Source: Stachybotrys elegans
Taxonomy: Eukaryota; Ascomycota; Sordariomycetes; Hypocreales; Stachybotryaceae
Length of the DNA: 64,000 nt
NCBI GenBank assembly: GCA_020746835.1
Contig: JAGPNK010000002.1
Coordinates: 1 to 64,000 of the forward strand
Direction: 5' to 3'
Shown: piece by piece, positions 14,397 through 48,442 of the stretch
Position numbering within the stretch: position 1 is the first letter of the stretch
Layout of the letters: each line of letters begins with the position of its first letter
Program-made: the position numbers and the translations under genes
Notes under the pieces: model-generated
Told to the model about the DNA's origin: nothing
The model's database searches: none
The model's input: the letters and a program-made list of their open reading frames with translations, nothing else

Positions 14397-16001
14397 TCAT
14401 GGCTTGTTGAGCAAATCCCAAATCTCTAAACCCTTCTCCCACTCATCATCTGTCCAAATATCCGTCTCGCCATCGCTCCTCCACCGCCTCACCTCCTTGG
14501 GCTGCTTTGGGCCCCATTCCACTTTGTCGCCCTTGATAAAGGACGCGAAGCCTTGGTTCCAGCCTCTGAGCAACGCCTTCTCCTGGTCAGTCAGCCCACC
14601 CGAGAAGTTGGCACCCCAGAACCAGATGGGCACATCACTCGAGTGTGTCACCCCCAATTCAAGAGGGAAAGTCCCATTGACGCAGTCGACCCGCTTGTCG
14701 AAGCGGTACCGCAGAACCTCGACACCCGGAACGAGGCCACCTTGAAACAGTGCGTTATATAGTCCGCGCTGAAGAGCATGGACTTGAAGGCTCGCGTAAG
14801 TCTTGCCGAAAAATTCCTTCCAATCATCGTAGCCAGCTGGGAGCTCCTTGTTCGAGCCGCAATGGTGCCCCATCAGCTTTCTCACTGCACTCTCTGGAAA
14901 CTCTGCGCAGAGGCGAGAGTAGACAGCGTGATGAGAGTTTTCAGGTGTTCGCCAGGTGCGATAGATGGTGTGTTCATCTCTGCATTCTCCGCTGAGAAGC
15001 GTGATGCCACGTTCCTTCATTCTCTTCCCAAAATCCCCATCGCCCACCATAGACATGAGGTTCTTGGGCAAAAATGTGCCATTATCAACAAGTCGGAACT
15101 CGTGAATCTTCATCTCCGTTTGTACCCCCACCAACTGCTGGTACGGCAGACTTCGAAGGATTTCCAACTTCTTGGCTGATGGGAGCTCAAGCGAGATACC
15201 CAGCCTTGTGATGTACTCGTCGAATTGCTTTTGCTGCTCTGCCAGTGTCTTGGGCGTAACGCCGGGCCCGTTGGAGAGCATTGTGATTCTCCTGATGATA
15301 CGCGTCCCTTCTGGAGCACAGTATAGCTCGTGCGCCAGTTGCTGGAAAGCCGAGAAGCCGCCAGCAGAGTATCCAGCGGCGGTAATATTCGATGGGTCTC
15401 CTCCGAATAACGAGATATTTGCGTACGTCCACTCTAGAGCAGTTCTCTGGTCCCATAAGCCCATGTTGCCACTAGGTTCACCATTGCTCCTCGCCTCCGA
15501 ATCGAGCTCTTCACTTGCAAGAAACCCAAAGGCATTCAACCTGAAAGCAGGAAACACCATTATCGCCCTGAAGGCCGATTCCTTAAGAAGTGGCCCCAGT
15601 GAGCCTGGACCCCAATTGGCACTGCCGACTTGCAGGAAACCGCCATGGAAATACACGCAGACAGGCCAGCCCCCCTCCGGCGCAGGCTCTGCAGGGATCC
15701 AGATGTTCAGTTGCAGACAGTCCTCATCGAAGAGGGTTTTGTTTTGTGGGGTGCGAGCTGGAGGCTGTGGGCAGATTGCTGTTCCACCAGTGAATCGACC
15801 TGGGTTCGAAACCGTGCCGTACTTGAACTCCTTGGGTAACTTTCGAGGTGCTCGAAAACGGTATTCGCCAGTAGGTGGTAGGGCATAGGGAATGCCGCCA
15901 AAGTAGCGGACTACCGGTTCGTCGTGCTGACTCAAGGTCAGGCCTTCGATCAGCCCTAGTCGGCCAGCATCCAAGGTGTAGCTTTGCTGCTGGTATGCCA
16001 T
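14397..16001 (-). CDS. Type-B carboxylesterase
   Basis: Intronless, 534 residues, alpha/beta-hydrolase of the COesterase family (PF00135). The oxyanion-hole HGG is at about 119-121 (VYFHGGF), the nucleophile is Ser212 in GYSAGG, the acidic residue is likely in SGECRDEHT, and the catalytic His is likely in GVTHSSDVPIWFWG. There is no signal peptide, so it should be cytosolic, unlike lignin- or lipid-degrading secreted relatives. It would cleave small ester substrates. It is divergent from the acyl-CoA synthetase gene across a 560-bp shared promoter. Opening an ester in a plant or xenobiotic substrate would fit the cluster, but specificity is unknown. Confidence 0.93.
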   Translation of the reverse strand: MAYQQQSYTLDAGRLGLIEGLTLSQHDEPVVRYFGGIPYALPPTGEYRFRAPRKLPKEFKYGTVSNPGRFTGGTAICPQPPARTPQNKTLFDEDCLQLNIWIPAEPAPEGGWPVCVYFHGGFLQVGSANWGPGSLGPLLKESAFRAIMVFPAFRLNAFGFLASEELDSEARSNGEPSGNMGLWDQRTALEWTYANISLFGGDPSNITAAGYSAGGFSAFQQLAHELYCAPEGTRIIRRITMLSNGPGVTPKTLAEQQKQFDEYITRLGISLELPSAKKLEILRSLPYQQLVGVQTEMKIHEFRLVDNGTFLPKNLMSMVGDGDFGKRMKERGITLLSGECRDEHTIYRTWRTPENSHHAVYSRLCAEFPESAVRKLMGHHCGSNKELPAGYDDWKEFFGKTYASLQVHALQRGLYNALFQGGLVPGVEVLRYRFDKRVDCVNGTFPLELGVTHSSDVPIWFWGANFSGGLTDQEKALLRGWNQGFASFIKGDKVEWGPKQPKEVRRWRSDGETDIWTDDEWEKGLEIWDLLNKP

Positions 16002-16561
16002 CGCAGTGCAACTTATGCGGATTACGCTGGGAGGTTTCTGAGTGGACTAGGCTCTGACACAGTTACAGTTTGGTCGACACAACGTCTCAGGCTCACGATA
16101 TCGCACTTCAATAGCGCTTGGCCATCTCATTCTGACGTAGGGCCAGCTGATAGTTCTAGTACGGCATTGCCCGGCATACCCAGCTCCGCGGCTTAGTCCC
16201 GGTTGCTCTCAGCAAGACACGGAAAGGTGGCGCTTGGACTCCTACATTTACTTTTAGAGAAGAGAAGATAAGATTAGTCTAGCGGATGTTAAGGCCCTGG
16301 CAGCACGGAGCCAAGTCCGAGGCGAGAGAACCCGACGACTCCCCGGCGTTCACGTGTGCCGGTGACGGACCTGCGTCTAAGAGATTTTCCCCAATTGGCA
16401 ATGGTGCAGTGGGTATCGAAGTCCGGTTACTTTTGTTGAGCCATTGTAGGTGGACATGAGGTATGAGGCACTAATGGGCCAATCCGATTATATAGAAAAT
16501 AGAAAATCGATTCATCCTACGGACACGTTCCTCCTAGTAACTCGTTGAATCTGCCTACAAA
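16002..16561. promoter_or_regulatory. Divergent promoter: carboxylesterase / acyl-CoA synthetase
   Basis: The 560 bp between two divergent starts. It holds the word gaagtccggttac (16418-16430), which is shared with two other cluster promoters, and a TATATA at 16489-16494, about 70 bp before the synthetase ATG. Confidence 0.5.
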
Positions 16562-18415
16562 ATGCAAGCCAGTCTTCAGCGGACGCCGCTGTTAAAACTT
16601 ATCAACGAGCAGGACCCCTCGTCCATTGCCATTGTCAACCACAGCAGTGGCACAGCGTTTTCATACGGGTCTCTAATCCGTGACGTTGCACGAGCGCGGC
16701 ATGCGCTCTTGCAGTCCGTCGGCGACAAATCATTGGCAGGCGAACGGATTGGATTTATTGTTGAGAATGGTTATGGCTTCGTAGGTATGGATGGCACACT
16801 CAATCGCAATGAATTTCGTGACAAAAGGCTTCGTGGCTGACTAGAACTACCAGTCACGTTCTTGGCGATCCTGGCTTCTAGCGCCGTCGCGTTGCCTCTG
16901 GCACCTTCTCACCCGGCGAGTGAGTTGCGATATATTCTCAATGATAGTGCAGCAGCGGTTGTCATATCATCCGCCACACACGTCAAACAGGCCGAAGAAG
17001 TCCTCGAAGAGGGCTTGGATCATGTCCCTGTTCTGCACCAACTGGGCACATTCGATGAGCAAAGAGGGAACGCCGTCGACGTGGAATGGACCGAGCCACC
17101 CAGCGGCGCCACATGTGGCATGATGCTCTACACATCTGGCACAACGGCACGTCCAAAGGGCGTGGTGCTCCGAGAAGCCTGCCTGCTTGCCCAAGCGCAC
17201 ACCCTTCACGAAGCCTGGAACTACCAGCCATCGGACCGTCTCCTGCACATTCTGCCTCTGCACCATATCCATGGTACCGTGAATGCGCTCCTCGCACCTC
17301 TACTTGCGGGTTCAAGCGTCGAGTTCATGATTGGATTTAATGCTGAACGAGCTTGGTCTCGCCTAGCTGCACCATTCCTGCCCAACGGGAATGTCATAGC
17401 CAACAGCGCGAGCGACGGCACCAACAACGACGCCAGCGGTAAAATGGTGTTCCAGCCCATTACTTTCTTAACAGCTGTGCCTACAGTCTGGGCTCGCATG
17501 CTGTCCGCCTACCCTTCTTTGTCTTCCGAGTTTCAAAAGGCTGGCAAGAAAGCAATCTCCGTGGAGCACCTTCGCCTCAACATCTCTGGTTCGGCGTCCC
17601 TCCCTGCCCCGATCCGAGAGGCTTGGACCGACCTCTCCGAGGGCAACGTTCTGCTCGAGCGTTACGGTATGACTGAGATCGGTATGGCCATCTCTTGTGG
17701 CCTGGACTACAGTGACCGCGTTGAGAGTTCCGTTGGCTGGCCGCTTCCTTCCGTCGAGGTCCGCCTGGCTGAGACCAACGATGAGACGGGCGAGGAGACT
17801 ATCATTGCGTTTGGGGAAGAAAGGGACCCTGTAACAGGCAAGGAAAGGCAAGGAGAAATCCAGATCCGGGGACCAACCGTCTTCTCCGAATACTGGCGCA
17901 ACCCCGCCGCCACTAAGAAGGAGTTTACCCGTGACGGCTGGTTCAAGACTGGTGACATTGCCATTAGACGCACTGTTCCAGGGTCGGGCGAGGGCAGATC
18001 CGGCCCATGGGCTCGTGGCCCAGCATACTTCATCCAGGGCCGTCGCAGCGCCGACATTATCAAGAGCGGCGGAGAGAAGATATCCGCCTTGGAGATTGAG
18101 CGTGAGCTAATGGCCCTCCCCAACGTCGCTGAATGCGCAGTGGTTGGATTGCCATCAGAGGCCTGGGGCCAGAAGGTCGCAGCAGTGGTTGTCTTGTCAG
18201 AGGCAGGCAAGAACAGCGCCAAAACGTGGGGAGTAAAGGAGATGCGACGCGACCTCAAGGCTCACATCCCGCCGTTCAAGGTCCCCCAGGAGCTGGAGAT
18301 TGTTGAGTCTATCAAGCGCAATGCAATGGGCAAGGTGAACAAGAAGGATTTGATCGCAGCTGTCTTTGGCGATACCGAGAGAATAAGGAGGAGGAGCCTT
18401 AGTGGTCGCAGGTAA
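16562..18415 (+). CDS. Acyl-CoA synthetase, malonyl-CoA-synthetase-like (AMP-binding)
   Basis: Exons 16562-16784 and 16854-18415 (69-bp intron); 594 residues. It belongs to the ANL adenylating superfamily: the substrate acid is activated as an acyl-AMP and transferred to CoA. The ATP-binding motif YTSGTTARPKG is at 167-177, and the A5 motif ERYGMTEIG at 343-351. The RYGMTE form is, as I recall, characteristic of malonyl-CoA synthetases (MatB/ACSF3), where the Arg binds the second carboxylate. The later TGD and the C-terminal catalytic Lys region (NAMGKVNKKDL) are present. There is no peroxisomal SKL tail. In the Fusarium benzoxazolinone pathway malonyl-CoA is the acyl donor, so such an enzyme beside hydrolases is suggestive. 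A medium-chain or aromatic acid substrate remains possible. Confidence 0.88.
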
Positions 18416-18647
18416 TGGCAGTTGGTACATGGAATGAAGTACCGTGGCAAGTTTGATCGTTTTTATAATAGATTATTGTGTTTTACCAACCCTTCATCCA
18501 GAATCACAGTATACGACTACAGGGTCAAGTCATTTCCTGTGCCCGGAATGAGGGAGCGAAACATAACAATACAAAGGCGAATTTCGCTCAAGGTCTAGAA
18601 ACTCCGTAGTAACCTTCTATCTATGACTTTCTCACTACAGCTTCTTT

Positions 18648-20491
18648 CTACAACATCTTTTGAACCTGTTGTGCAACCCCCAAGACTTTTTCCTCCTCCA
18701 TGCGCCTGCCCACAATCTGCAGACCAACACTATACCCATCCATTTTCTCGATATCGTATAGGCCCCAGTTCCAAGCATCCATACTGTTACGGGGCTCGTA
18801 TTCCACAGGAGAAGGAGGATCAAGTGCTTTGGAAGCCTTGCCGGCTGGAAAAGACAGCGCAGTGTAGTCGAGGAAGTTGAAGAGCTTTGTGTAGCCAGGA
18901 TAGCGTAGTGTCCGATGCGGGATTGCGGTGTGTGGCGCGGTGGGCACAAGTAGAACGTCAACGGGTCGACCCGACGACGACCTCATGGCATTCCACATAT
19001 TATGGTACGCAGCCTGCACGGCCTTCTTTCTCTTGTTCAGTTGCCAATATTCGTAAACCGATATCGCCGGGCCACGTTCCACCAAGCTCTGGACATGAGG
19101 CATGAATGGCTCGCCACCTGCGGCAACATCGCGTCGAATATCTTCGCCTCCGTCAACAATGTAATGATCATCCTGTAGAAATTAGTACGCAGGGAACATG
19201 ATGGCTTCGAAGGGGAGTTGATCTCACCTGGATCTTGATGCAGTCGGAGTTTAGAGATGTATTCCAGGGAACGAGTTCATGTCCAGCTGCCACCAGCTTT
19301 TCGCATAATTCTTTAAATACCCTTTCAATGGGCGGATGTACCTTCACCGTTCCGTCATCTACCATAACCCCAAAAACTAACGGCTTTTGTGAATATCGCT
19401 GGAAGACGTCTTCTCTCCATGGCATAGGTGGGAGTTGAGGATCCAGTCTCCAGCACTCGGTCTCAATCACAGCTTTCGACGCCAGTGTAAGAGTGTTGAG
19501 TGTTCTTGCCATAGGGCCAACGACGGAAGGTATCTGATGTTGTCCATCTTGAGAGACCGCTACACCTTCATACGAAAACCTGCCGCTCTGGTGCCAGGTC
19601 AGCAAGTCAAGCACAACTGATTGTTAGAAAGTACGGTCGCCCACGCTTGGCTTGAAGCCCCATAAGCCGTTCATGTGGGCTGGGAGACGGATGGAGCCGC
19701 CAATATCAGTGCCCCAGCCGAGCGCTGACCCACTGAGGGCCAGAAGAGCACCTTCGCCTCCCGAGGAGCCGCCTGGAGTGAATTCAGGGTTCATCGGGTG
19801 CGTGGTCAGGCCCCAAAGCGGATTATCTGTTTCACCCCACTGCCAGGAGTTAGTAAGTTTGAACCAGATGCAGATGGTGTATTTTCGTACCAGAATACTC
19901 TGAGGCAGGTTTGTTTTGGCGATGATGACGGCTCCGAGTTGTTGGAGCACCTTCACTAGGACACAATCTGAGTCGGCTGGATGGAAGGCGCGACCAACAT
20001 AGCCCAGTGTTGAGTCTAGCCCTTCAAGATTGAATTGATCCTTGAGCGAAACCGGCACACCATGGAGGGGCCCCTTTAGTCGCCCATGTTCCTGCTGAAA
20101 GGCGTCGAGCTCACTCGCTTGGTTCAGAGCCACATCGAAGCAGACCTCTGTCAAACAGTTTGTCTAGCAGCACTTGGTTAGCGGCGCCTTACGGTGGCCA
20201 AATTTCAGATGGCGAGCATACTCTCTGATGGGCTTCTTTGGCTCTAAGACAGGGGTTAGTCATAGGAATTGGCATGTTTGCTTTACCAATGATCTCTTAC
20301 TTTGCAATGTGAGCAAGGACGACGGCCTCGCATGTAATCTCTCGGGTTTCTAATAGCGTGGTCAAGTCTTGGATGTCTTTCGCAGCAAGGATGCGAGGAT
20401 CAGACGGTGTATCTTCGCCGTAGGACTTTATGAGTTTCTTATCGCGTATTGCCCGCTTCTCAGCGACAACCTCTGTCCAGTGGCGAGGCAT
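18648..20491 (-). CDS. Amidase-signature hydrolase (acetamidase/fatty-acid-amide type), first copy
   Basis: Six exons on the minus strand: 20301-20491, 20222-20243 (only 22 nt), 19891-20163, 19645-19839, 19228-19587 and 18648-19172. Introns are 51-58 bp, and all joins keep the frame. The product is 521 residues. The Ser-cisSer-Lys triad is visible: Lys in PVSLKDQF, the cis-Ser in GGSSGGEG, and the nucleophile Ser in GTDIGGSIRLPA. The enzyme hydrolyses a carboxamide to acid plus ammonia or amine in the cytosol. The start ATG (20491, MPRHWTEVV) is the one used in relatives; the upstream frame lacks support. It is divergent from the dienelactone hydrolase gene over 420 bp, which suggests joint regulation. 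Confidence 0.92.
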
Positions 20492-20911: not shown

Positions 20912-21940
20912 ATGACAGACATCCATGACCCTGTGCTCGCCAAGCCGGCTGACTTGTGCTGTCTCAAAGGCGACTTTCACAATGGTGAGCCCACGGGAAG
21001 CATCATCCAGATCGAGGGCGTTGACACCTACGTGGCCAAGCCTGATGCCAAGGTTGTCAATGGAAATGTCTTGCTCTTCTTCCCTGATGCCTTCGGGCTG
21101 CACATTAACAGCAAATTGATGATGGACGCCTACGCTGCTTGTGGATATCTCACTCTCGGCGTCGACTACTTTCTTGGCGTAAGTGCATCATTAGAAATCC
21201 CGGCTTGTTTGAAGAACACTCTGTTGATACGTCTAGGGTTGTAGGACGGCGTGACAAAGTATAGCACTTCGCCGCTAAATGATCCCAACTTCGACCTGGG
21301 AGCTTGGACCGCCAAGCATCTGCATCCCTCAGAGGAGATTGGGCGGCAGTGGGTAAAGAACGTCAAAGCCAAGTACGGCAACGACGGTAAAACCAAATTC
21401 GGTTGCGTTGGCTACTGGTGAGTTTGCTCGATTCCCCTGAAATGCTCAGGTAGCGTGAGTTGATCAAAAATAGCTGGGGCGCACGGTTCGTGTTAGAACA
21501 GCTGTCCGATGATGGCATTTGCGTAGCTGGCGCTATTGCCCACCCGTCTTTCGTAAACGAGAGCCATGTGCAGAAGTCGAAGGGTAAGAGCAGCTCAACA
21601 TACGGCTGAGGGCCTGAGATGATTGTGATAGCTAAACCGTGGCCAATAGCACCCATCGCGTTCTCTGTTCCGGCCACCGACAAACTGTTCTCAAATGAGT
21701 CGCGCACGAGAGTGATTGAGATCTGCACTGAGAAGCAGCAACGGTTCAACATGCAAATCTTCTCCCACGTTGGCCACGGCTTTGCAGTAAGATCAGAACC
21801 AACCGTCAAGATCTATGTACTAGGCTAACAGACTTTGCCAGTCACGAACGCGACTTACGGACCCTTATGAGGTTTGGGCCAAGGAGCAGCACTTCAAGGC
21901 ATTCATCGAATGGCTTGACTTCTGGATTGCCCAGGCATAA
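20912..21940 (+). CDS. Dienelactone hydrolase-family protein
   Basis: Five exons: 20912-21178, 21245-21417, 21474-21583, 21650-21786 and 21842-21940; 261 residues. The catalytic triad is Cys147 in GYCWG, created exactly across the second intron, then Asp in PATDKLF and His in SHVGHGFA. DLH enzymes open the lactone ring of dienelactones formed in chlorocatechol and aromatic catabolism; fungal relatives act on varied lactones or thioesters. For exon 4 I chose the acceptor ccaatag, because it gives the family sequence KSKAPIAFSVPA; an in-frame acceptor 18 bp earlier would insert six residues. It is paired head-to-head with amidase 1. Confidence 0.92.
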
Positions 21941-22655
21941 TGCGCAACAAGGCGAGACTGTACTAGCTGCAGACGAAAGTCGTAAATAACAAAAGGCATA
22001 GAATCGGGAATATGAAAGAGACTAGAATAGACAAGTGTTATCACAATACTCAGTGACTCTTATATATCTCAATGTGGCAACTGCACAGTAGATACAGAAC
22101 ATGACCAGCAACTACTCGTAACGTTATGGGTTAGGGACCTACGTTGATGAGGCCGTCACGGTGGTTGGTTCTGATGTCCGAACCCTGCCACCTCTCGTTC
22201 GCTACGATCAGGAGGGAATCAGCCTAAGTGGTCTAGTCCACCCGTCCCATGTGGCATCATGGCTTTAGAAGCTCCTCAAAAAGCCCTTGCTATGCAGAAA
22301 TTGAAATAAACGAGACAGACCATGACGTGAACTCTTCCGCCACAAGCGGCATAGGCAGACCTAAGGGTGCACCGTGCCTAGCCGTATAATCCTCGGCCCC
22401 CTATCAGCGGGAAGAGATAACTCGGTCCACTTAACGGCCTTGATTATAGACTTGCTGTAAATCGCTATCATTGTGGCCAACAATCCATGCTCAAGGCTGA
22501 GATGGGCTCGGGGAACTGCCGGCACACTCGGGGAGCAAGCTTGGGCAATTCAGTTGCTTCGACGCTAGTAATTCGCCACTCCGTAGAACAGATGGGATGC
22601 GGGGCAGAGTAGCCACCGCGGGTGGTATCTTATTGCGATAAGGATATCGGTAGGG
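21941..22655. other. Intergenic region
   Basis: The 3' flank of the dienelactone hydrolase and the promoter of the aldo-keto reductase. No coding or repeat structure recognised. Confidence 0.4.
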
Positions 22656-22736: not shown

Positions 22737-23950
22737 ATGGTCAAAACGATCACTTTCATCCACGGTGTGGAGGTTCCAGTGCCCGGCTTTGGTGCCATGG
22801 GCATTAGCTCCTCATTGGGCCAGAACCTCAGTTACGACGAGGCCGAGCCTGTTCTTCTAAAGGCCCTGGAGCTGGGATGCACATTCTGGGACACGGCCGT
22901 ATCCTACCGGGCTGGGGTCAATGAGAAGCTCCTCGGCGACTTTATCCGCAAGCACAACTGCCGAGATAAGCTTTTCAGGATGTATCCCCTCACCCATACC
23001 CAACCCTCCCACTAGCTAATACGTGTGGTTCTGTAGTTGCCTCAAAATGTGGTGTTGCTGTTTTCGAAGACGGTGCTGTCACTAATAAGGCTGAGCACAT
23101 CAAGAGTTACATTGATGGAACTATTGAGCGACTTGGATTCACACCTGATCTCTATTACCTCCACCGCATTGACCGAAGTCAGTATCCCGCACTTCCCGCC
23201 CCAATCGCTGAAGCTGACCCTTCAAACGTAGCCACCCCTCTTGAGGAGTCTATCACAGCCTTGGACTCGCTTCGCAAAGAAGGCAAGACAAAGTACATCG
23301 GACTTTCTGAATGCTCTGCGGCGACCCTGAGAAAGGCGAACTCCAGTTAGTCACCACCAAGCCGTAAAGACACTGCATCGTTCACTGATACGTTCATGCA
23401 GTTGCCAAGATTCATGCTGTCCAGGCCGAATACTCCGCCTTCGAGACACTCCATGAGGTCGATGGACTTGTCGACACAGCACGCGAACTTGATGTTGCTT
23501 ACATTGCCTATGGACCTCTAGGTCACGGCTGGCTGGTCGAGAACTTTCCCTACAACTCGCCCGAAGACTTCAACGAGGACGACTACCGCCGTGAGAGTAA
23601 GCCAGCGATTCCCTATCTATGCTCTCATCAATCACTGCTGACATCCCTCCTTAGTCCCCAAGTTCCAGGGCGAGGACTTCTACGCCAACAAGAAGATTAG
23701 CGAGGGCTTCAAGGAGCTTGCTAAGCGCAAAGGTTGCACTGTCACGCAGATTGCGCTCGCGTGGGTGGCTGCTCAGGGCATGATTGCAATTCCGGGCACC
23801 ACAAAACCGTCGCGGCTAGTGGAGAATTGGTCTGCAAGAGATATTGAGTTGACAGAGGAGGAGTTGAAGCAAATGCGAGCCACGATTAATGAGCTGAAGC
23901 CGCGGGGTGACAGATACAATGAAGTGGCCGCGAAGGACATCGGTAACTGA
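22737..23950 (+). CDS. Aldo-keto reductase (fungal pyridoxal reductase/YakC-like), first intron donor anomalous
   Basis: Exons by family alignment: 22737-22977, 23037-23345, 23402-23596 and 23655-23950, giving about 346 residues in one frame. The catalytic tetrad is visible: Asp in FWDTAVSY with Tyr following, Lys in ASKCG, and His in YYLHRID. The C-terminal NADPH-binding part ([15 protein letters not shown]) is intact. It would reduce an aldehyde or ketone with NADPH. The first intron is odd: frame and homology require the exon to end at 22977, but the intron then begins ggatgt, where gtatgt would be expected. The only GT nearby (22982) breaks the frame. This is either a non-canonical donor, a sequence error, or the first lesion in a decaying gene. 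Confidence 0.82.
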
Positions 23951-35555: not shown

Positions 35556-35763
35556 CGGAACAGTTCCAGGGCAATATGAATTAAATTTATGGAAATGGTG
35601 TATCGGATTGGGGCTCATTTATCACCTTGTAACGCTTCATGATACTCACGGATCTGTCATCTGCTCATCCACACGTTTCACGGGATCAGCTTGCACATTA
35701 CCTTCAATCTTGTCTATATTGGTCTAGATACTTTTATTCAGCTATGCTTCGCTGCCATCGAAA

Positions 35764-37616
35764 TCAGGCCTTCAATGCGTCCGCAATAACCTCAGTGGCC
35801 ATTAGCGTTTGCTCGTCCTGGAATCGCCATCCGACCAGTTGGAAACCCGTTGGTGCGCCATCAACAACGCTCGCATCATCTAGCGTCACAATTAGCGAAT
35901 AAAAGAATTTGAGCAGGGCTTGACCCACATCCATCTTTGGAGTCAACAATCTTGTTGACCTTGCCGAAAGGAACGACACTGCTGGGGAACTAGGCTCGTC
36001 AGTGACTAGTCACCTAGTGTCTCTCAAGGACACCAAATTTCTCTGGGAGAACATACGTCAAGCAGGTTCCACAGTATTGTGTACATCAGTGGACCGAACT
36101 CTCCATGGGGGACGGCTGAGCCACGGCTGGCTGGGCAAAGCAAGACGTCGAGATCGGCATCCCGCCAAATCTTGGCCCACTCGTCTCGATAGTCATGTAT
36201 ATCGGCACTGATGCGAATGTTTTCGTGCAGGTCCGGGACATAGCCAGGGTCCAGGAACTGGCCTGGGTCCATGGCTGCGAGGTCCGCTATCGGCTGTTCG
36301 CCACCGTCTTCCAGAAATTTGAAGGGTAGGTTTACTTGGTCGAGTGCGAACCAGCGCATGGCGATCTTCATCGCCTTCATGGTTGGTGGAGCCTCGATGA
36401 CCTTGATCGTGTGCCCTGCGGCTCTGAGCTTGTCCACTGCCGACGCGATACATCTCGCGATAGGTGGGTAAACAGGAAATTCAGGGTCTTGCGACCATAC
36501 TCCAATAGTTAGCTTCTCCTCTCTGGGAGCATCGTGCCATGGCACGGCAAGCGCCGTAGAATCGTAGCGCCAAGGTTGAGCTTGAATGACAGTCTTCATA
36601 AACAGTGTAAGATCCTGCGCTGTGTGCGCGATCGGCCCAAGGGTTGGCTGCACACCCTGCCACCCCTTGGAGGCCAGATCAGCCTGTTTTGCCCATGGCA
36701 GACGGTTGACTGTGGGCCGGAACCCGTAGACCCCAGTGAACAATGCAGGAACTCGAACAGAACCAGCGATATCCGAGCCAACACCCATGATGGATCCCCG
36801 GAGGCCTATCTGGGCTGCTTCACCTGAGCTGCTGCCACCAGGCGAGAGGCAGAGCTTGTAAGGGTTCAGGGTTCGCCCAAACACATTGTTGAAACTCTCG
36901 CAGACCTGTCCAACCATCAGCCACAATTACTGATGAGGAACTTTGCACTCACAAAGAGTGTCTGAGGGACATTGGTTTTGCAGTAAAACACTGCTCCTGC
37001 AGCTTCGAGCATCTCGGCAATTACGGCGTGCTCATCCGCAGCAGGATATTTGAGATGACCGACGAAACCCATGGTAGAATGTTCGCCTTTGATATGAACC
37101 ATATCCTAGCAAGGTTAGCTGTGTCAATGTTCGGAGGTGTTTGAATACATACCTTGAGAGTGATGGGCAGCCCGTGAAAGGGGCCGACCGTTTTGCCTTC
37201 CTTGGCGAAGTATTCGTCAAGCCATCGCGCACGTTCGAGCGCTTTGTCAAAGAAAATCTCCGTGAGGGAGTTGGTCTAATTCATGGCAGATGTTAGCTTG
37301 GACATGCCAGCCCGGTCGAGGGGCATACCAGTTGATGCACGAGTGCTGCCCGCTTGCAGAATGCCGCGGCGACATCATATGACGAAAGCTCACCCGAGGC
37401 AATCTTTGCCGTTAGGCTCGTCGCAGTGTTGTTTTCTGTGATGTCGTTCTCCCGATCCGTCAGCAACGCAGCTTCTTTGAGCAAGTCGAAGGCGCTGTAC
37501 GTGCTCTCCGGGGAGACCTTGCTAGTGATGGTGGTTGGCAACCGCCATTCTTGGGGAATGAGGGCATCTCTTGCCGCCCTTTTCTTCTGAATCAACTCTT
37601 GCCACTCTGACGTCAT
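35764..37616 (-). CDS. Amidase-signature hydrolase, second copy
   Basis: Six exons on the minus strand: 37329-37616, 37153-37275, 36953-37105, 36057-36905, 35929-35989 and 35764-35879; introns of 47-67 bp. The product is 529 residues. The triad is present: Lys in GLPITLKD, the cis-Ser in GGSSSGEAA, and the nucleophile Ser in GSDIAGSVRVPA. The C-terminal FGKV...DGAPTGFQLVGW is of the fungal acetamidase/fatty-acid-amide-hydrolase type and is only continuous if the 49-bp final intron is spliced. It differs clearly from amidase 1 (for example GGSSSGE versus GGSSGGE and different intron positions), so it is not a recent duplicate. It converges on the regulator gene with only 208 bp between stops. 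Confidence 0.92.
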
Positions 37617-38521
37617 TATGCGTGTGAGCGATGGTTCTTGTTAAAAATGCTGCTTAATCTAACTGGGCTTGGGTGTATCCATAGTTATATTAGAGCCAAC
37701 ATGAATATACCGAGTTATCATGCTTCCGGCACTTCACCGCTATCGACACTGTTGTTTCCGCAGATACCGCTATCATCTATGCAGCGGTCTTCGGGGCAAA
37801 GCCGGAAAGGTGATAGCTTAGCCGCCCTGACAGGGTCTATCCCTTTGAGTGTGATAAGGCTCCCTCAATGTATTCGACCCACATACCCCCCCTCAATTCA
37901 GGTCAGTATACAAAGTAACTTCGAATAGGGGTACAGCTGTACAGACAAAGAAAGGCTGTGACGTATGTAATATAGCTCTATGTACCTGGCAGGAATGCTG
38001 GGACTTCTATTATAGCCTAATTTCTTAGGAAACTGAAGTTACGATTTTTTTTCTGTATTTTTATTGGTTAAAAACCCTGTCTACGACATTGAGGGAGCCT
38101 TATCACACTCAAGGGGATAATTAAGCAGCGATAGTGGGTGCGCCGGAATTGGTCCTATCTGAGCCGAGCCCTATTACGTATTTATTTGGATTGACTTGCC
38201 TACAGTATACTGTACTGGAATATACCGAGTAATAACCAGGAGGAGTTTGCCATGTAATTATGCTCAACTGTGCGAGAACATCCTGATCACTAGTACAATG
38301 TAGTGGTCCAGCAAAAACAGCTACATACCGCTAAAATCACGCTTTGACATGGTGATTAGAAGCTAGCCTTGAAGCGTCGTCTGCCAACTTGAGTCAAGCA
38401 GTCACTAATAGAGGTGATATTCAAAAGCAGTCTACGTTGATCTTCTCACAGCCGTAATTCTATTTTATTCCTCCTCTTCGGATTTCCTGACCTTGCCTCC
38501 CCGAACTCGTGCTCCGTAGGT
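37617..38521. other. Intergenic region with a MITE-like inverted-repeat segment
   Basis: The promoter of amidase 2 lies at the left. The centre holds a candidate foldback element (37722-38150, listed separately). No gene supported. Confidence 0.45.
37722..38150. mobile_element. Candidate MITE/foldback element
   Basis: About 430 bp. A perfect 27-bp inverted pair (37845-37871 and 38086-38112, core gagtgtgataaggctccct) lies inside weaker outer arms (37724-37744, ccggcacttcaccgctatcg, against 38126-38149 reversed). There is no coding capacity. Ends and target-site duplication could not be fixed by eye. Confidence 0.5.
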
Positions 38522-39877
38522 TTAGTCGGTGAGATCTGCTCGCTGTCTCCAAGCCTCATCGTTGGCAAGTCCCACGTAGTCTTCGTGAAACAAGCACGTG
38601 GCAAGGAACATGTCCCCATTGCGATTTTTCGGCATAATGTACGTCAGGTCAGGGACAGGCGACATGCGTGCGCGCCTCACAAAGTCTGGCGCACCAAGGC
38701 CCTTGCCAAAGTCGCAGGTGTTCAGCCAGTGAAGCTGGGCCCACGAAGAGCACAGAAAATCTCTTCCAGGCTTGATGCGGGCTCCGTAGAAGATTGTGGT
38801 CTTGTCTTCGGTATTGTTGATGAGTGTAGCGAGACTGCGAACAAAATGATCGTCTACCTTCTTTAGCGATTCTCTGCTCTCAACAGCAACGTCCGCCAAT
38901 GATGCGTCAGCGAGCTCTTGTGCGGTTTTCCAGGTCGTATCGGCCAGTGCGACAAGATGACCAAGGTATCCATCCTCAACAGGAGGGTTCAGAATCGACC
39001 GGGAGTCTACGGCACGTTGCAGCTGGACCATCTCGTCCTTGGCAACTCGTCCTTGGCGGACGCGAACCGCGGTGAGGCGCAGGACAAGGAACGCGGTGAG
39101 AGCATCGTTTGTAGAAACCCAGGTGCGCCCGCTTGAAGCCTCCTTCTTCAGGTCTGCCAGCTGCTTTGCTGAAAAGCGCCAATAGTGCCACTCAATTGGT
39201 CTCGGCGGGCTCTTTGGTTGGGGAGCGGCCTGGAGCATCGAGGGACGACGCATGACGTCGTGGTCGGCAGACGGCTCCCCGGGCTTCAGAAGAGGCACAA
39301 TCGTATCGGCGTCCCGGTTGCCGGCCGCCACCAACTTCGGGTCATACTCCTCGCCTCTGCCTGCGGCAGCAAACATCTTCAAGACAGTCCCTTGGCCGTT
39401 CATGTCCAGGGCGTTGTGCATGGAGGCGACGCAGAGGAGAGTGCCACCCTCGACGAAATTGGCCTGTGCAACGAAGACGGGCAATTCAGTGCCAGCCTCG
39501 TACTGGTAGCCCATGCCTTTCACTGGGCAGAGAATATCGCCGTCAAGCATAGCGAAGGGGGCATCGGCCTTGACCACGTATTCGTACGCAGGGCAAAGTT
39601 TTGTGCAGTCCTTGCGAAGTATGGGAGATTTGCCCTGATGCGGCAAATAAGGTACAATCTCGTATTTTCCCGAGCTGGTGGCAGTTTGACCCGTCTTGAT
39701 CACTTGGCCAGCAAGCGACGGATACGCTTCGAGCAACTTGAGCGCGCTCTTATCCAGGGTAGCCATCACATCGTCGCGAGTGGTTCCGGGCTTGTCTGGG
39801 AATCCGAGGATGATGACAGTGTACGTATCCCAGCAGAGTTGGCCAAAAATGCCGGGCTGTCGCAGCTTTTGTGCCAT
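38522..39877 (-). CDS. Acyltransferase of the transferase/BAHD-like family (trichothecene 3-O-acetyltransferase TRI101-like)
   Basis: Intronless, 451 residues from the ATG at 39877. The open frame extends 26 codons further upstream to a GTG at 39955, so a 5' exon or a different start cannot be excluded. The HxxxD catalytic motif is at H154-NAL-D158 (SMHNALDMNG), and the structural DFG motif is present as CDFGKGLGAPDF. These two motifs define acyl-CoA-dependent acyltransferases of PF02458. Members move an acetyl or other acyl group from CoA to a hydroxyl or amine. In this cluster it could cap the toxic product, playing the role that NAT-type N-malonyltransferase plays in Fusarium FDB2; this is inference. 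It acts in the cytosol. Confidence 0.88.
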   Translation of the reverse strand: MAQKLRQPGIFGQLCWDTYTVIILGFPDKPGTTRDDVMATLDKSALKLLEAYPSLAGQVIKTGQTATSSGKYEIVPYLPHQGKSPILRKDCTKLCPAYEYVVKADAPFAMLDGDILCPVKGMGYQYEAGTELPVFVAQANFVEGGTLLCVASMHNALDMNGQGTVLKMFAAAGRGEEYDPKLVAAGNRDADTIVPLLKPGEPSADHDVMRRPSMLQAAPQPKSPPRPIEWHYWRFSAKQLADLKKEASSGRTWVSTNDALTAFLVLRLTAVRVRQGRVAKDEMVQLQRAVDSRSILNPPVEDGYLGHLVALADTTWKTAQELADASLADVAVESRESLKKVDDHFVRSLATLINNTEDKTTIFYGARIKPGRDFLCSSWAQLHWLNTCDFGKGLGAPDFVRRARMSPVPDLTYIMPKNRNGDMFLATCLFHEDYVGLANDEAWRQRADLTD

Positions 39878-40807: not shown

Positions 40808-42465
40808 TTAAACTCCCTTATTCTCAATAGTAATGCTTTCTGCCTGAATCTTCTTATCCACCTGTAGCACATCGGCATCCTCACCATCAAAGATAATGGC
40901 CATTTGTTCCAGAGTTCGGCCACGGGTCTCAGGGTAAAGGAAGTAGGCCATCAGCAGGAATGCAATCAGAAAGACAATAAAGGTGAAATAGTACCTCCAG
41001 CCGATGCTACTGAGTGCGATGGGGTTCACAAACATGTTGAAAACACCAGCGACAATACCAGAGAGCCACATAATACCGACGCCCCTGGAACGGAGACGGT
41101 ACGGCCAGATCTCGACGGGGTACGAGAACATCAGCGGTGTGCTATCTTGTGTTAGCTGAGAGCAGGCAGTGGGATATCAAGAGTACTCACAGCCCCACGT
41201 CGTAACCGGCGAAGAAGATGAAGAGAAACGGGATAACAGTAGTTCCCACGGCCGAATTGCCGGTGCTTGCAAAAGAACCGGATAACCCGGTGATGATAAT
41301 GTAACTGACTAACATTGTTCCGGCAGAAGTAAGGAATAATGGTCTTCGCCCAAGCCTCTCAACACAGGCTGCAGCTCCAACCGACCAGAAGAGGTTCCAG
41401 ACCTGAAGCAACGCAGAGATGAGCGTTTGGTGAGTGACACTTGTGATTCCCACAGTCCTCAGCACAAGGGCGAGATAGTATGACACAACTCCATTGCCAC
41501 TCCACTGGCTAAAGACTCCAAGAGAGACAGAGATGACTAGGCGCCATCTGTTACCCTTGGTCTTGAGCATGTCCATGTAGCTAGTAGTGGCATGGGCTTC
41601 CCGCTCGGCCTTGATAGTGTTTCCAATTTCCTCGGATTCGAAAGTGACGAGTGGTGCGTTAGCGACTCCAGCCGCGTGGTGCTTGACAATGAATTGGACT
41701 GCTTCCTCCATCCGGTCGACAGAGGCAAGCCACCTGGGGGATTCGGGAGTCAGGAAGAAGCCAGGGAGGGCTATAAGGGGCAGCAGGAGCTGCAGGAGGG
41801 ATGGAAGTCGCCAATCCCAGGAGCTAGAATAATTCCTTGTTCCAAACGTAACCCATGCAGATAGCAGGCTGCCAAGGTAGAAGCCGCACTGGAAACAAGA
41901 AGCGGCGATTGCTCGGTGCGTGGGGTAGGCGATTTCGCTGATGAGAATAGGCGCGCCGATGCTGTAGCAACCAGCAGCCACACCGAGCAGGGCGCGTGCA
42001 GCAATGAAGACACCCGCGCTGGGAGCAGCAGTTTGGAGAATGGCGCCAGACACAAGAAACACGTAGGCGATCCAGATACCTGCCTTTCGGCCATATTTGT
42101 TGGTGGCCCAAGCGGCGACGAAGAAAGAAACGCCGTTGGAGATCCAGTAGATTCCGTTAATAAATCCGAGCCAGGCGCCCTCAGGCATGTCCATGAATGC
42201 GTTCCATTTAGGAAGCGCCTGAAGACCGTTCATCAAAGATCCATCGTAGCCGTTGGCGGAAGCTTGACCAGTTTATTAGCGCCAAATTCCCGGGCAAGCA
42301 TGTATATGTCGAACTGGACTCACAGAACAGGATGAGGGAAAGGATGTAGTAGTTGAGCTTCAAAAGGTGTGGCTTTCGGTACCAGGGCTTTTCATCAGTC
42401 GGCAACACTGATGCCAACTGGCCGTCGACCGAGTCGGGGCTCATTTCGACGATGCTGCCTCCCAT
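40808..42465 (-). CDS. MFS sugar transporter (lactose permease/hexose transporter type)
   Basis: Three exons on the minus strand: 42324-42465, 41191-42262 and 40808-41141 (introns of 61 and 49 bp); 515 residues and 12 predicted helices. Sugar-porter signatures in order: SANGYDGSLMNGLQAL in TM1, NKYGRKAG in loop 2-3, PESPRWL before the central loop, ERLGRRPLF in loop 8-9, and PETRGRTLEQM at the end of TM12. It would bring a mono- or disaccharide, or a glycoside, into the cell with H+. The ATG at 42465 is the first true start; an upstream frame begins at TTG. It shares a 589-bp divergent promoter with the GH3 beta-glucosidase, a classic substrate-uptake plus hydrolysis pairing. Confidence 0.94.
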
Positions 42466-43054
42466 TATGGTCAAGGTTGTATGGACTGTTGATCAAGACT
42501 TTGGCTTTTGTTGTTGCTCTGGAGGCAGGTCAAGAAGAACATTGTCGTCATGGGCAAGCTTCAGACTTTATAGTTGGGAGCGGTAACGTCCGTCTAGAGA
42601 TCGGGGAACTCACGGAAGACGATATCCGGCCCAGGCCTTTGGTCCTGTTGCTTGACGGACTGCAACCTATCTACCCCAGGAATCTAGCCCACTAGACTAC
42701 TGGTATGAGGGCGGGGGTGGGCTAACGATTCAGTCTGGGGTCGAATCCACAGGGAGATAGCACATTGTTATCTATGGAGCCCCTTGATATCAATCTCCCA
42801 GCCTGATAACCAGGGGGAAATAGCGGAGAAGAACGGAAAGAGGAGGGTGGAGAAAGCCCGAAAGGGACTAGTTTACCGGGATCTCTTTCGGTTCTGCTCT
42901 CATGGTGAGTTTCGCTAAGCATTGGCCCCTCCTCTACTTTAAGGGCGCGATAGCACAGCGGAAAACAGGATGATACTACCCAGCTCTCTTCCCCTGCAGA
43001 GCACCAAAGTGGGCCCAAACAACCAAGTCACATCAACAACTTGGAGCCAGCATC
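42466..43054. promoter_or_regulatory. Divergent promoter: sugar transporter / beta-glucosidase
   Basis: The 589 bp between two divergent starts. It includes gcgggggtgggc (42711-42722), which fits the SYGGRG consensus of the carbon-catabolite repressor CreA. Joint carbon repression is likely but not shown. Confidence 0.45.
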
Positions 43055-45735
43055 ATGTCACCTTTACTGAGCAACCCTCACCAAGATGAGCTGTTGGTTG
43101 AAGAACTGCTGTCCACGCTGACTCTGGAGGAGAAAGTGGCACTTACTGCAGGTGGGTTTCTTCCGCAGCCGTTTCGCTTCTCGACTTAACAACCTGATAG
43201 GCAAGGACTTCTGGCACACGACACCACTCCCGTCTCGAGGTATACCATCTATACGCCTCTCTGATGGGCCCAACGGCGTGCGTGGCACGCGCTTCTTTGA
43301 CGGTGTTCCCTCGGCCTGTCTTCCTTGCGGGACTGCGCTTGGTGCTACCTTCAACCCAACCCTGTTGACCGAGCTGGGACAGCTGCAGGGTCAGGAGGCA
43401 AAGGCCAAAGGCGCCGTGGTCGTGCTGGGTCCAACGCTCAACATCCAGAGAGGCCCACTGGGTGGTCGGGGCTTCGAATCCTTTTCAGAAGACCCCATCC
43501 TATCTGGCATTTTAGCCGGGCATTACTGTAGGGGGGTTCAGCGGGAGAACATTGCTGCCACGCTCAAGCACTTTGTCTGCAATGACATGGAGCATGAACG
43601 AATGGGAGTCAATGTCATGGTGACTCAACGTGCTATGCGCGAGATATACCTGTTGCCCTTTATGCTAGCCATCTCCATAGGCGATCCCCGGGCCGTCATG
43701 ACAGCATACAACAAGGTCAACGGAACACATGTCTCAGAGAGCAAGGAACTGCTACAGAATGTTCTCAGAGACGAATGGAAGTTCGACGGCCTAGTCATGA
43801 GTGATTGGTAAGTCGTATCCCGAATCAAGATGTAGTCGGAGCTGATGATTGGTAGGTTCGGTACCTATAGCACAACGGGTTCCATTCAGGCGGGTGTTGA
43901 CCTTGAGATGCCTGGCCCAACGCGTTGGAGAGGGCAAGCCCTGTCTCATGCTGTCAAAGCGAACAAGGTCACGGAGCCGCAGCTCGACGACCGCGTGCGA
44001 AATGTCCTGAACCTCATCAACTATTCGGCAGGATCTGGAGTCCCCGAAAATGCCCCCGAGTTACACTTGAATCGCACGCAAGACCGGCAACTTTTACGGC
44101 GAGCAGCGGCCGAGTCCATCGTGCTCCTCAAGAATAAAGATGCCGTATTGCCATTCTCCAAGTCCAAAAGAACCGCTGTCATCGGACCCAACGCCAAAAC
44201 CGCCGTCTTCTGCGGAGGAGGCAGCGCCTCGCTCCTCCCGTACTACGCCGTCTCGCCCTACGAAGGTATCGCAAGCCAGTGCGAGGATACCGTGTTTTCC
44301 CAGGGCGCTACCAGTCACAAGATGCTGCCGCCGCTGGGCAACGTCATGCGGACGGCGGAAGGCCATCGCGGATTCACCTGGAGAGCATACAACGAGCCCC
44401 CTTCCGAGGTAGATCGGAAACCCATAGACGAGCGAGTCCTTGGAGAGTCTAGCATCTTCTTCCTGGATTATGAGAACGAAGCTCTGGCTCCAGTTTGGTA
44501 TTGCCAAGCAGAAGGAGTCTTCACCCCTGATGAGAGTGGCCTCTACGATTTTGGCCTTGGGGTCGAAGGCACGGGCATGCTGTACATTGACGACGTCCTT
44601 GTCATCGACAACGCCCAACATCAAAAGCCAGGCGGCGTCGTGTGGGGCTCTGGCACCATCGAAGAGATTGGTAGCAAAGAACTAGTAGCCGGTCAAGATT
44701 ACCGGGTTCGACTGGAATGGGGCTGTGCCAAAACAAGCAAACTATCCCCAACCGGTCCCGTTGGTGGCAAGCACGGAGGCTTCAAGCTTGGGGTTTGCCG
44801 GCGGATCCACCCTGACGATGCCATTGCAGAGGCCGTAGAGGTAGCCAAAAATGCTGACCAGGTCGTGCTGGTAGTGGGACTGAACGGTGAATGGGAGACG
44901 GAAGGCGAGGACCGTGAGATGATGGACATGGGCTCTCAAAGCAACACTCTTGTCTCCAAGGTACTGGCGGCTAATCCTAACACGGCCGTCGTAGTTCAGT
45001 CGGGAACGCCCGTCGTGATGCCCTGGATCGACGAGGCCAAGGCAGTCTGCCATGCTTGGTATGGCGGAAACGAGACTGGAAACGCGATTGCAGATGTCTT
45101 GTTTGGTAATGTGAACCCGGTAAGGCGGTCTTCTCTCTCCCCATTCTTGCGTCCATGGCTTACGATTGATGCAGGCCGGCAAGCTGCCGCTGACAATACC
45201 GCGACGACTCCAAGACAACCCTACATATTTCAATTTCCGCTCTGAGGCAGGACGCGTCCTGTACGGTGAGGATGTGTACGTGGGCTACCGTTACTACGAA
45301 ACGATTGACGCCAAACCCCTCTTCCCCTTTGGCCACGGCCTGTCCTACTCTACCTTTGACCTGTCAAGCCTTAACGTGCAGACAGACGACGTCGTGACAA
45401 GAATTACACTGCAGCTCTGCAACACAAGTTCTCGTGCCGGCACTGAAGTCATCCAAGTCTATGTCGCACCGCCGACAACACCGGTTAAACGCCCGCTCAA
45501 GGAGCTCAAGGCTTTTAGCAAGGAGTTTTTGCAAGCTGGAGAGAGTAAGCTCGTCGTGGTGGATTTGGACACGGTGTTCTCGACAAGCTATTGGGACGAG
45601 GGCTGCGAAAAATGGTGCAGCCGGGCGGGCGAATACAAGCTCCTAGTCGGTACTAGTAGCGCAGAGATTGCATTGGAAGCGTCCTTCACGGTCGGCAGGA
45701 CTAATTTTTGGACAGGGCTCACGCCGCAAGCGTGA
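43055..45735 (+). CDS. GH3 beta-glucosidase with PA14 insertion (intracellular type)
   Basis: Exons 43055-43151, 43201-43807, 43856-45119 and 45175-45735 (introns of 48-55 bp); 842 residues. It has a GH3 N-terminal barrel with the nucleophile Asp234 in VMSDW, codon-split by the second intron, and substrate-binding signatures [10 protein letters not shown] and [15 protein letters not shown]14 domain sits at about 385-520 ([20 protein letters not shown]), followed by the C-terminal GH3 and fibronectin-III-like domains ([12 protein letters not shown]). There is no signal peptide, so it should cleave glucosides inside the cell, which matches import by the adjacent porter. Plant glucosides such as phenolic or benzoxazinoid glucosides are plausible substrates (inference). 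The repeat block begins only about 100 bp after its stop. Confidence 0.95.
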
Positions 45736-48440: not shown

Positions 48441-48442
48441 TA

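What the first reader, a model, noticed from the sequence alone, without database searches (positions are those of the whole stretch)
14397..45735. Large catabolic/detoxification gene cluster resembling, but not matching, Fusarium benzoxazolinone (FDB) clusters
Fourteen adjacent genes cover uptake, bond hydrolysis (MBL-fold, two amidases, esterase, dienelactone hydrolase), redox steps, acyl activation and transfer, and a zinc-cluster regulator. FDB1/FDB2 clusters are known to combine an MBL-fold lactamase, amidases, dienelactone hydrolase and malonyl-CoA-dependent N-acylation. Here a NAT-type enzyme is not seen, while a TRI101-like acyltransferase and a beta-glucosidase/sugar porter pair are present. 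This may be a variant pathway for a lactam- or amide-containing plant glucoside.
Basis: partly seen in the sequence, partly recalled or inferred. Interest (0 to 1): 0.85.

Follow-up and report, generated by a model that had tools for sequence, protein, structure and literature searches.

The report
Plant-toxin detox gene cluster in Stachybotrys
This stretch of a Stachybotrys elegans genome carries a close relative of the gene cluster that maize-infecting Fusarium uses to break down the cereal defence chemical benzoxazolinone, here with extra enzymes and in a genus where we found no report of it.

Summary
All 14 genes are there. "Resembling, but not matching" is half right. The host is Stachybotrys elegans (Tsr1 100% identical to B0I35DRAFT_391509). 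[quoted passage not shown] The MBL groups with Fusarium MBL1, not MBL2 (100/100). A missing NAT is expected: NAT1 belongs to FDB2. Extra here are a YiiM-type molybdenum reductase fused to a phthalate-dioxygenase-like reductase, a TRI101-like acyltransferase, and a promoter dyad (CGG-N7-CCG, best form CGGGGCAANNCCG) in 6 of 7 cluster promoters and 0 of 2 promoters of the three right-hand genes. Those three (acyltransferase, sugar porter, GH3) are doubtful members, although the acyltransferase and an MBL1-like gene are also linked in Exophiala spinifera. MBL1 is closer between Stachybotrys and Fusarium coicis than between two Fusarium species; Tsr1 proxies show the opposite, which points to lateral transfer. 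Function is inferred; nothing was assayed.

The parts
14397..16001 (-). carboxylesterase (COesterase), counterpart of GLRG_10897 / FVEG_12634 by domain and position
   Evidence: PF00135 9.8e-55; other matches in own genome 35-43% over parts
16562..18415 (+). AMP-binding enzyme, probable malonyl-CoA synthetase, counterpart of GLRG_10898 / FVEG_12633 by domain and position
   Evidence: PF00501 and PF13193; best NCBIfam model malonyl-CoA synthase 3e-89 but 299.7 bits against a cut-off of 558
18648..20491 (-). AMD1-type amidase, six exons, 521 aa, no internal stop
   Evidence: PF01425 4.2e-101, profile 2-445 of 445; model
20912..21940 (+). DLH1-type dienelactone hydrolase, five exons, 261 aa, divergent from AMD1
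   Evidence: PF01738 9.9e-26, profile 1-213 of 217; Cys147, Asp194, His226 located (triad role recalled)
22737..23950 (+). aldo/keto reductase, counterpart of GLRG_10901 / FVEG_12638 by domain and position; exon ends approximate
   Evidence: PF00248 on three separate ORF pieces; low-scoring model
24330..25526 (-). MBL1 ortholog, metallo-beta-lactamase fold gamma-lactamase, 398 aa, HWHFDHVG at 147
   Evidence: 86.4% to F. coicis, 83.6% to F. camptoceras MBL1; 100/100 clade
26279..27964 (+). YiiM-type MOSC domain fused to a phthalate-dioxygenase-reductase-like module with 2Fe-2S; candidate counterpart of FDB2 gene FVEG_12641 (sequences not compared)
   Evidence: PDB YiiM 6.3e-26 (domain alone) and phthalate dioxygenase reductase 4.4e-28; MOSC cysteine 146, CLAGACGAC at 512
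28275..29890 (-). amino-acid transporter, counterpart of FVEG_08292 by domain and position; ends approximate
   Evidence: PF01490 1.2e-17; N-terminal exon seen
31057..32590 (-). FAD monooxygenase, salicylate-hydroxylase-like, counterpart of FVEG_08293 by domain and position
   Evidence: TIGR03219 2.8e-66, 223.9 bits against a cut-off of 446.35; the paper gives 1.06e-66 for FVEG_08293
33194..35555 (+). Zn2Cys6 transcription factor, counterpart of FVEG_08294 by domain and position, probable cluster regulator; ends approximate
   Evidence: PF04082 1.3e-25 and PF00172 4.8e-6; full cysteine motif after splicing read by eye
35590..37616 (-). second amidase, counterpart of FVEG_08295 by domain and position; 3' exons approximate
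   Evidence: PF01425 3.4e-52 on its largest exon; model
38522..39877 (-). TRI101-like BAHD-type acyltransferase, 451 aa, HNALD and DFGKG motifs; membership uncertain
   Evidence: PF22664, PF02458; Tri101 structures 1.7e-51; homologs; motifs (their meaning recalled)
40808..42400 (-). sugar porter (MFS), divergent from GH3; membership doubtful; ends approximate
   Evidence: PF00083 3.2e-61
43047..45735 (+). GH3 beta-glucosidase with PA14 and Fn3-like domains; no signal peptide apparent by eye; membership doubtful; start approximate
   Evidence: PF00933, PF01915, PF07691, PF14310 on separate ORFs
26070..26082 (+). exact CGGGGCAANNCCG between MBL1 and the MOSC gene
30666..30678 (+). exact CGGGGCAANNCCG between transporter and FAD monooxygenase
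32846..32858 (-). exact CGGGGCAANNCCG between FAD monooxygenase and regulator gene
37792..37804 (+). exact CGGGGCAANNCCG upstream of second amidase; a second CGG-N7-CCG at 37727
22509..22521 (+). CGG-N7-CCG dyad, two letters off the consensus, upstream of aldo/keto reductase
16162..16201 (-). two imperfect sites (one and two mismatches) between carboxylesterase and AMP-binding gene; only the second is a CGG-N7-CCG

Best explanation
An FDB1-type xenobiotic detoxification cluster in Stachybotrys elegans. Shown by sequence: MBL1 orthology, gene content and order, open gene models, no second close copy of the three genes searched, a shared promoter dyad. Inferred: benzoxazolinone-type lactams induce the cluster through its Zn2Cys6 factor, which binds CGG-N7-CCG (best form CGGGGCAANNCCG). 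MBL1 opens the lactam ring. DLH1 and the amidases clear ring-opened esters, carbamates or amides. The malonyl-CoA synthetase supplies an acyl donor. The YiiM-reductase fusion removes N-hydroxyl groups, for example from the hydroxamic acids that are parent compounds of benzoxazolinones. The aminophenol product is acylated by an enzyme outside the FDB1 core: one of two unlinked NATs, or the neighbouring TRI101-like acyltransferase. The cluster probably moved laterally among Fusarium, Stachybotrys and relatives.
For: MBL in a 100/100 clade with F. coicis and F. camptoceras MBL1, in the other half of the tree from Fusarium MBL2 types. The seven genes from AMD1 to FVEG_08295 of the F. verticillioides FDB1 table present in order (7 of its 9 genes), AMD1/DLH1 divergent as in three published species, plus the three extra C. 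graminicola genes GLRG_10897, 10898, 10901. Own genome, three genes searched: other MBL matches 43% and, in three pieces of one locus, 33-63%; other carboxylesterase matches 35-43% over parts; other MOSC fusion 40%. Dyad in 6 of 7 core intergenic regions; of 1000 dinucleotide shuffles 1 reached the hit count at its best of 16 spacers and 0 reached six regions. 4 of 14 genome-wide exact consensus matches lie inside the cluster; up to two mismatches, 19 matches in the window against 8.94 expected, 0 of 100 shuffles as many. MBL1 identity S. elegans-F. coicis 86.4% exceeds F. coicis-F. camptoceras 83.4%, while Tsr1 shows 75.2-77.4% between S. elegans and five Fusarium species and 88.4-90.6% for three Fusarium pairs. 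YiiM and phthalate dioxygenase reductase matches with the MOSC cysteine kept.
Against: No expression or enzyme data for this fungus. Orthology was tested by tree for MBL1 only; the other genes rest on domains, order and published tables. The NmrA-like FVEG_08287 has no counterpart among the models in the interval, and whether the MFS gene at 11.9-13.1 kb corresponds to FVEG_08288 was not tested. The AMD1-DLH1 region lacks the dyad. In Fusarium, deletion of AMD1 or DLH1 did not stop BOA breakdown (abstract), so their roles are uncertain. The dyad was found in the same promoters that it is said to explain; 6 of the 14 CGG-N7-CCG in the window lie in genes (5 coding, one in an intron), two of them in the TRI101-like gene and one in GH3, and one more lies at 13858; a one-mismatch consensus match lies outside at 3905. 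A direct-repeat class with spacer 8 also hit 5 of 7 core regions with 0 of 200 simple shuffles, but it is in 3 of 4 left-flank control regions too. The Tsr1 comparison uses other Fusarium species as proxies, not F. coicis and F. camptoceras.
Confidence: 0.78

Rival explanations
1. The same cluster, but its natural substrate in this fungus is another lactam, lactone or hydroxamate and not cereal benzoxazolinone.
For: MBL2 of F. verticillioides is not needed for BOA breakdown, so relatives differ in substrate. F. camptoceras has FDB1 but is noted mainly from banana and cacao. S. elegans is known as a parasite of Rhizoctonia (abstract in listing), and no paper in the library holds both Stachybotrys and benzoxazolinone.
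Against: Its MBL groups with MBL1, the form that hydrolyses BOA in F. verticillioides; most of the FDB1 gene set is kept as well.
Confidence: 0.3
2. The TRI101-like acyltransferase, sugar porter and GH3 are part of one pathway that imports and cleaves a glucoside before the lactam steps and acylates the product afterwards.
For: Adjacency; sugar porter and GH3 are divergent; the acyltransferase PV08_07932 and an MBL1-side gene PV08_07937 of Exophiala spinifera share a 2845400-bp contig, the only species that I saw named in both printed hit lists. The review passage says that benzoxazinoids are stored in glycosylated form.
Against: 0 of 2 promoters of these genes hold the dyad. None of the three is named in the published FDB1 or FDB2 gene tables that I read.
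Confidence: 0.2
3. An FDB2-type cluster, or a hybrid of FDB1 and FDB2 made after their duplication.
For: It holds four gene types otherwise listed in FDB2: carboxylesterase, AMP-binding, aldo/keto reductase, 2Fe-2S protein.
Against: No NAT match on its contig; two NAT loci on C3 and C9. MBL is MBL1 type. FVEG_08295 has no FDB2 paralog, and a counterpart by domain and position is present here.
Confidence: 0.06
4. Unrelated catabolic genes that happen to be neighbours.
For: Gene clusters of mixed enzymes are common in fungi (general knowledge).
Against: Gene-by-gene agreement of order with published clusters and a shared promoter dyad.
Confidence: 0.01

Closest known systems
FDB1 cluster of Colletotrichum graminicola (GLRG_10897 onward), Glenn et al. 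2016, PMC4726666
   [quoted passage not shown] synteny with F. verticillioides reported as highly conserved; no FDB2 cluster in the genome.
   Different: The paper names three genes beyond F. verticillioides FDB1, so a MOSC/2Fe-2S gene is apparently not part of it (figure not seen); no C. graminicola sequence was held here by name for a direct comparison.
FDB1 cluster of Fusarium verticillioides (FVEG_08287-08295)
   Same: AMD1, DLH1, MBL1, amino-acid transporter, salicylate hydroxylase, Zn2Cys6 factor and second amidase in the same order; AMD1 and DLH1 divergent.
   Different: Here four more enzymes lie inside or at the left edge; the NmrA-like gene is not seen; MFS relation untested.
FDB2 cluster of Fusarium verticillioides (FVEG_12625-12641)
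   Same: Carboxylesterase, AMP-binding enzyme, aldo/keto reductase, 2Fe-2S protein, transporter, by the names in the table.
   Different: NAT1 is absent here and the MBL is not MBL2.
YiiM and other MOSC N-reductases (E. coli YiiM, human mARC)
   Same: MOSC domain by sequence with the invariant cysteine; a review passage reports YiiM-like proteins with added flavin and 2Fe-2S domains.
   Different: Location in a detoxification cluster; substrate unknown.
Tri101 trichothecene 3-O-acetyltransferase
   Same: Same profile families; Tri101 structures are the best PDB matches.
   Different: Its database relatives run from 89% down to 34% identity; Tri101 proper was not placed in the tree; the substrate is unknown and nothing here ties it to trichothecenes.

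Membership tests
FDB1 cluster | MBL1 ortholog rather than MBL2 | tested here: met
   100/100 clade with F. coicis and F. camptoceras MBL1 in a tree of 67 rows
FDB1 cluster | AMD1, DLH1, MBL1, transporter, salicylate hydroxylase, Zn2Cys6 factor, second amidase in that order | tested here: met
   7 of 7 by domain and order against the published table; sequence orthology not tested except MBL1
FDB1 cluster | AMD1 and DLH1 divergently transcribed | tested here: met
   18648-20491 minus, 20912-21940 plus; published arrangement
FDB1 cluster | NmrA-like gene and MFS gene at one end (FVEG_08287, FVEG_08288) | tested here: inconclusive
   NmrA-like not among the models in 14-46 kb, no search made for it; an MFS gene at 11.9-13.1 kb was not compared with FVEG_08288
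FDB1 cluster | not linked to NAT1 or an FDB2 cluster | tested here: met
   NAT matches in the genome only on contigs C3 and C9, none on the window's contig C12
FDB1 cluster | induction by BOA and need of MBL1 for BOA breakdown | not testable with these tools
   no expression data or assay
FDB2 cluster | NAT1 in the cluster | tested here: not met
FDB2 cluster | MBL2-type lactamase | tested here: not met
YiiM/MOSC N-reductase | MOSC domain with invariant cysteine | tested here: met
   Cys146 aligned with the cysteine of the conserved PC(Y/S)KL stretch of YiiM; invariant cysteine described
YiiM/MOSC N-reductase | binds molybdenum cofactor and reduces N-hydroxylated compounds | not testable with these tools
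   needs protein
TRI101 | acetylates trichothecenes at O-3 | not testable with these tools
   HxxxD and DFGxG motifs are present but the substrate is unknown

The most novel reading that the evidence does not exclude
FDB-type clusters carry a self-sufficient molybdenum enzyme, a YiiM domain fused to its own reductase, that reduces benzoxazinoid hydroxamic acids (DIBOA, DIMBOA) to lactams. In S. elegans the lactamase step would then be followed by acylation of the aminophenol by a BAHD-type TRI101-like enzyme fed with malonyl-CoA, in place of NAT1. That would be a complete, NAT-independent benzoxazinoid detoxification route in one locus.
Probability: 0.15. Interest if true: 0.72.

Novelty: new variant of a known kind. 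Interest (0 to 1): 0.5.

Why it matters
Glenn 2016 proposed that FDB1 arose in Fusarium and moved from there to C. graminicola. A progenitor-like FDB1 in Stachybotrys, with more of the FDB2 gene set and an MBL1 that branches outside the two Fusarium sequences, reopens where the cluster came from and how often it moved. The YiiM-reductase fusion gives a concrete, untested enzyme for the hydroxamic acids that precede benzoxazolinones, and the dyad gives a regulon test that can be carried straight to Fusarium FDB1 and FDB2.

Tried and rejected
Chance adjacency: rejected on gene order. FDB2 membership: rejected on the lack of NAT and on the MBL tree. A second FDB-like locus in the genome: searched with 3 of the 11 cluster proteins (MBL, carboxylesterase, MOSC fusion), not found. 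That the TRI101-like gene and the GH3/porter pair belong to the same regulon: no dyad in 2 of 2 promoters, left open. tRNA and Rfam scans of the window: nothing. The first gene-finder runs chained genes together because intron cost was too low; replaced by the two-strand version and by hand-checked splice sites. Fusarium, Colletotrichum and Exophiala DNA are not in the collections that I could fetch, so synteny there rests on papers and on locus tags in hit lists.

Literature: no paper in the held library has both 'Stachybotrys' and 'benzoxazolinone'. Of the other searches I saw titles and abstract starts only: 20 of 32 papers, 15 of 41, 11 of 11, 3 of 3, 10 of 10, 12 of 754, 10 of 97, 20 of 12,368. 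None of those lines named an FDB cluster in Stachybotrys, the dyad, or a MOSC enzyme of FDB clusters. In PMC4726666 'MOSC' and 'molybden' occur 0 times, and in PMC10512309 'MOSC' 0 times. Supplements were not readable, and many subscription papers are not held.

Rows dropped: the MBL tree used hits P0001-P0066, the first 66 of the 120 printed out of 1576. The acyltransferase tree used hits P0242-P0280 plus P0286, P0288, P0289 and P0298, i.e. 43 of 87, its own record replaced by the window protein. The first dyad scan tried 48 orientation/spacer classes with simple letter shuffles; the later test took the best of 16 spacers of the inverted class only, with dinucleotide shuffles, and a longer region upstream of the second amidase.

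Full report
WHAT IS THERE. The window is fungal and equals contig C12:1-64000 of a 43.4-Mb assembly in 61 contigs. A Tsr1 reading frame on contig C56 is 100% identical to B0I35DRAFT_391509 of Stachybotrys elegans, on a contig of the same length, 2152387 bases. AMD1 and DLH1, both rebuilt by hand across several introns, give complete models.

IT IS AN FDB1-TYPE CLUSTER. Glenn et al. 2016 (PMC4726666; seen: outline and abstract, passages, sections 18 and 23, section 21 part 1) list F. verticillioides FDB1 as NmrA-like, MFS, amidase AMD1, DLH1, MBL1, amino-acid transporter, salicylate hydroxylase, Zn2Cys6 factor, second amidase. The window has the last seven in that order. They state that C. [quoted passage not shown] The window has these too, with AMD1 and DLH1 between the second and the third, which would fit the numbering. 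The divergent AMD1-DLH1 pair was described for F. pseudograminearum, F. verticillioides and C. graminicola (PMC3460631; passages and section 12). The salicylate-hydroxylase-like protein scores 2.8e-66 against TIGR03219, below that model's cut-off; the paper gives 1.06e-66 for FVEG_08293. The two E-values come from different searches, so this is only a rough likeness.

MBL1 ORTHOLOGY. Of the 120 hits printed out of 1576, the first is F. coicis (87%) and the second F. camptoceras (84%). In a tree of 67 rows the window protein, these two and one unnamed protein form a 100/100 clade; the Fusarium MBL2 or 'gamma-lactamase fdb1' types lie in the other half of the tree. The motif HWHFDHVG is present at residue 147, as the HxHxDHxG of Mbl1 in the paper. 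PMC5610705 (passages) gives 85% between FVEG_08291 and its C. graminicola ortholog; no sequence of that name was among the printed hits.

NOT FDB2. NAT1 is the signature of FDB2. The genome has two NAT loci, on C3 and C9 (exon-wise search). Close second copies of the three FDB-type genes searched are missing: other MBL matches are 43% and, in three pieces of one locus, 33-63%; other carboxylesterase matches are 35-43% over parts; the other MOSC fusion is 40%, on the same contig 1.9 Mb away. Which NAT group the two loci belong to was not tested; PMC4542470 (passages) reports that malonyl-CoA was used only by the N-malonyltransferases, group II.

LATERAL HISTORY. MBL1 identities: S. elegans-F. 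coicis 86.4%, S. elegans-F. camptoceras 83.6%, F. coicis-F. camptoceras 83.4%. Tsr1: S. elegans against five Fusarium species 75.2-77.4%, three Fusarium pairs 88.4-90.6%, S. elegans-S. chartarum 82.7%. Tsr1 of F. coicis and F. camptoceras themselves was not compared. The order is reversed, which vertical descent does not predict. The tree puts S. elegans as sister to the three others, not inside Fusarium (99/83), so the direction of transfer is open and an old duplication with losses is not excluded. The cluster lies between the contig start and RIP-like AT-rich DNA at about 46-76 kb.

A PROMOTER DYAD. In the 5200 bp of seven core intergenic regions, inverted CGG-N7-CCG occurs 7 times in 6 regions; the AMD1-DLH1 region has none. 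In 1000 dinucleotide shuffles the best of 16 spacers reached 7 hits once and six regions never; no shuffle had four sites sharing five spacer letters. Other spacers give 0-2 hits in the intergenic part of 14-38 kb. Four sites read CGGGGCAANNCCG exactly. The whole genome has 14 exact matches, 4 of them within these 12 kb; the backwards control has 10. Against it: the motif was found in the regions that it is tested on; 6 of the 14 dyads in the window lie in genes (5 coding, one in an intron), two in the TRI101-like gene and one in GH3, and one lies outside at 13858; a direct-repeat class with spacer 8 did nearly as well in the first scan but is also in 3 of 4 left-flank control regions. The promoters of the TRI101-like gene (930 bp) and of the porter/GH3 pair (646 bp) have no CGG-N7-CCG. 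The likely binder is the Zn2Cys6 protein (inference from its class).

THE EXTRA GENES. The MOSC protein matches YiiM over residues 31-191 (6.3e-26 with the domain alone) and phthalate dioxygenase reductase over 264-552 (4.4e-28). The MOSC cysteine (146) and the 2Fe-2S motif CLAGACGAC are kept. YiiM reduces an N-hydroxylated base analog (PMC5818509, passages). mARC also reduces hydroxamic acids, though not all, and YiiM-like proteins with flavin and 2Fe-2S domains are on record (PMC10637980, passages). DIMBOA is a cyclic hydroxamic acid (abstract in listing). A role on such compounds is my inference. FVEG_12641 of FDB2, called a 2Fe-2S protein and induced by 9.5 log2 units on BOA (PMC10512309, passages and section 9 part 1), may be its counterpart; sequences were not compared. 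The TRI101-like protein has 86 homologs at E up to 0.001 besides its own record. The nearest named ones are Sarocladium strictum and Fusarium lateritium (88%; 87.4 and 86.9% in global alignment), again closer than Tsr1 (73.6% and 76.4%). Exophiala spinifera PV08_07932 (71%) and the MBL hit PV08_07937 (65%, on the MBL1 side of the tree but outside the MBL1 clade) share a 2845400-bp contig; E. spinifera is the only species that I saw named in both printed lists. Against membership: no dyad in its promoter, no such name in the FDB gene tables, and presence in many fungi with no named MBL1-like hit.

VERDICT. A well-supported FDB1-type cluster in a genus for which the held library showed no report, with at least one enzyme beyond the FDB1 content named in the text that I read. 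Substrate, induction and the role of the right-hand genes remain to be tested. How FDB1 works is known only in part even in Fusarium: MBL1 is needed for BOA breakdown, AMD1 and DLH1 were dispensable (abstract).

Noticed in passing
window 3085-3537 (-): One reading frame matches ABC_toxin_N (7.1e-24) and, weakly, the TcA TcB-binding domain: a Tc-toxin-like gene piece in a fungal genome, near weak ankyrin and SesA-like matches. Described only.
   Followed up: no
window 46000-64000, continuing to about C12:76000, and C12:108000-132000: AT-rich blocks: 10 of 14 four-kb steps have 10-29% GC, the rest 35-41%, with TpA/ApT 1.16-1.76 and depleted CpA/TpG in most, typical of repeat-induced point mutation.
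   Followed up: partly
window 60001-62000: Inside the AT-rich block, 44% GC with a very strong AT skew of -0.44, unlike its surroundings.
   Followed up: no
C12:1936471-1937904 (-), in L016: A second MOSC-reductase fusion, 40% identical to the cluster enzyme, about 1.9 Mb away on the same contig.
   Followed up: no
P0244 and P0251: Two proteins both labelled Sarocladium strictum are only 79.6% identical in the TRI101-like family: misnamed genomes or paralogs.
   Followed up: no
window 11892-13091 (-): An MFS transporter just left of the carboxylesterase, with a CGG-N7-CCG dyad at 13858 upstream of it; it might be a cluster member or the counterpart of FVEG_08288.
   Followed up: no
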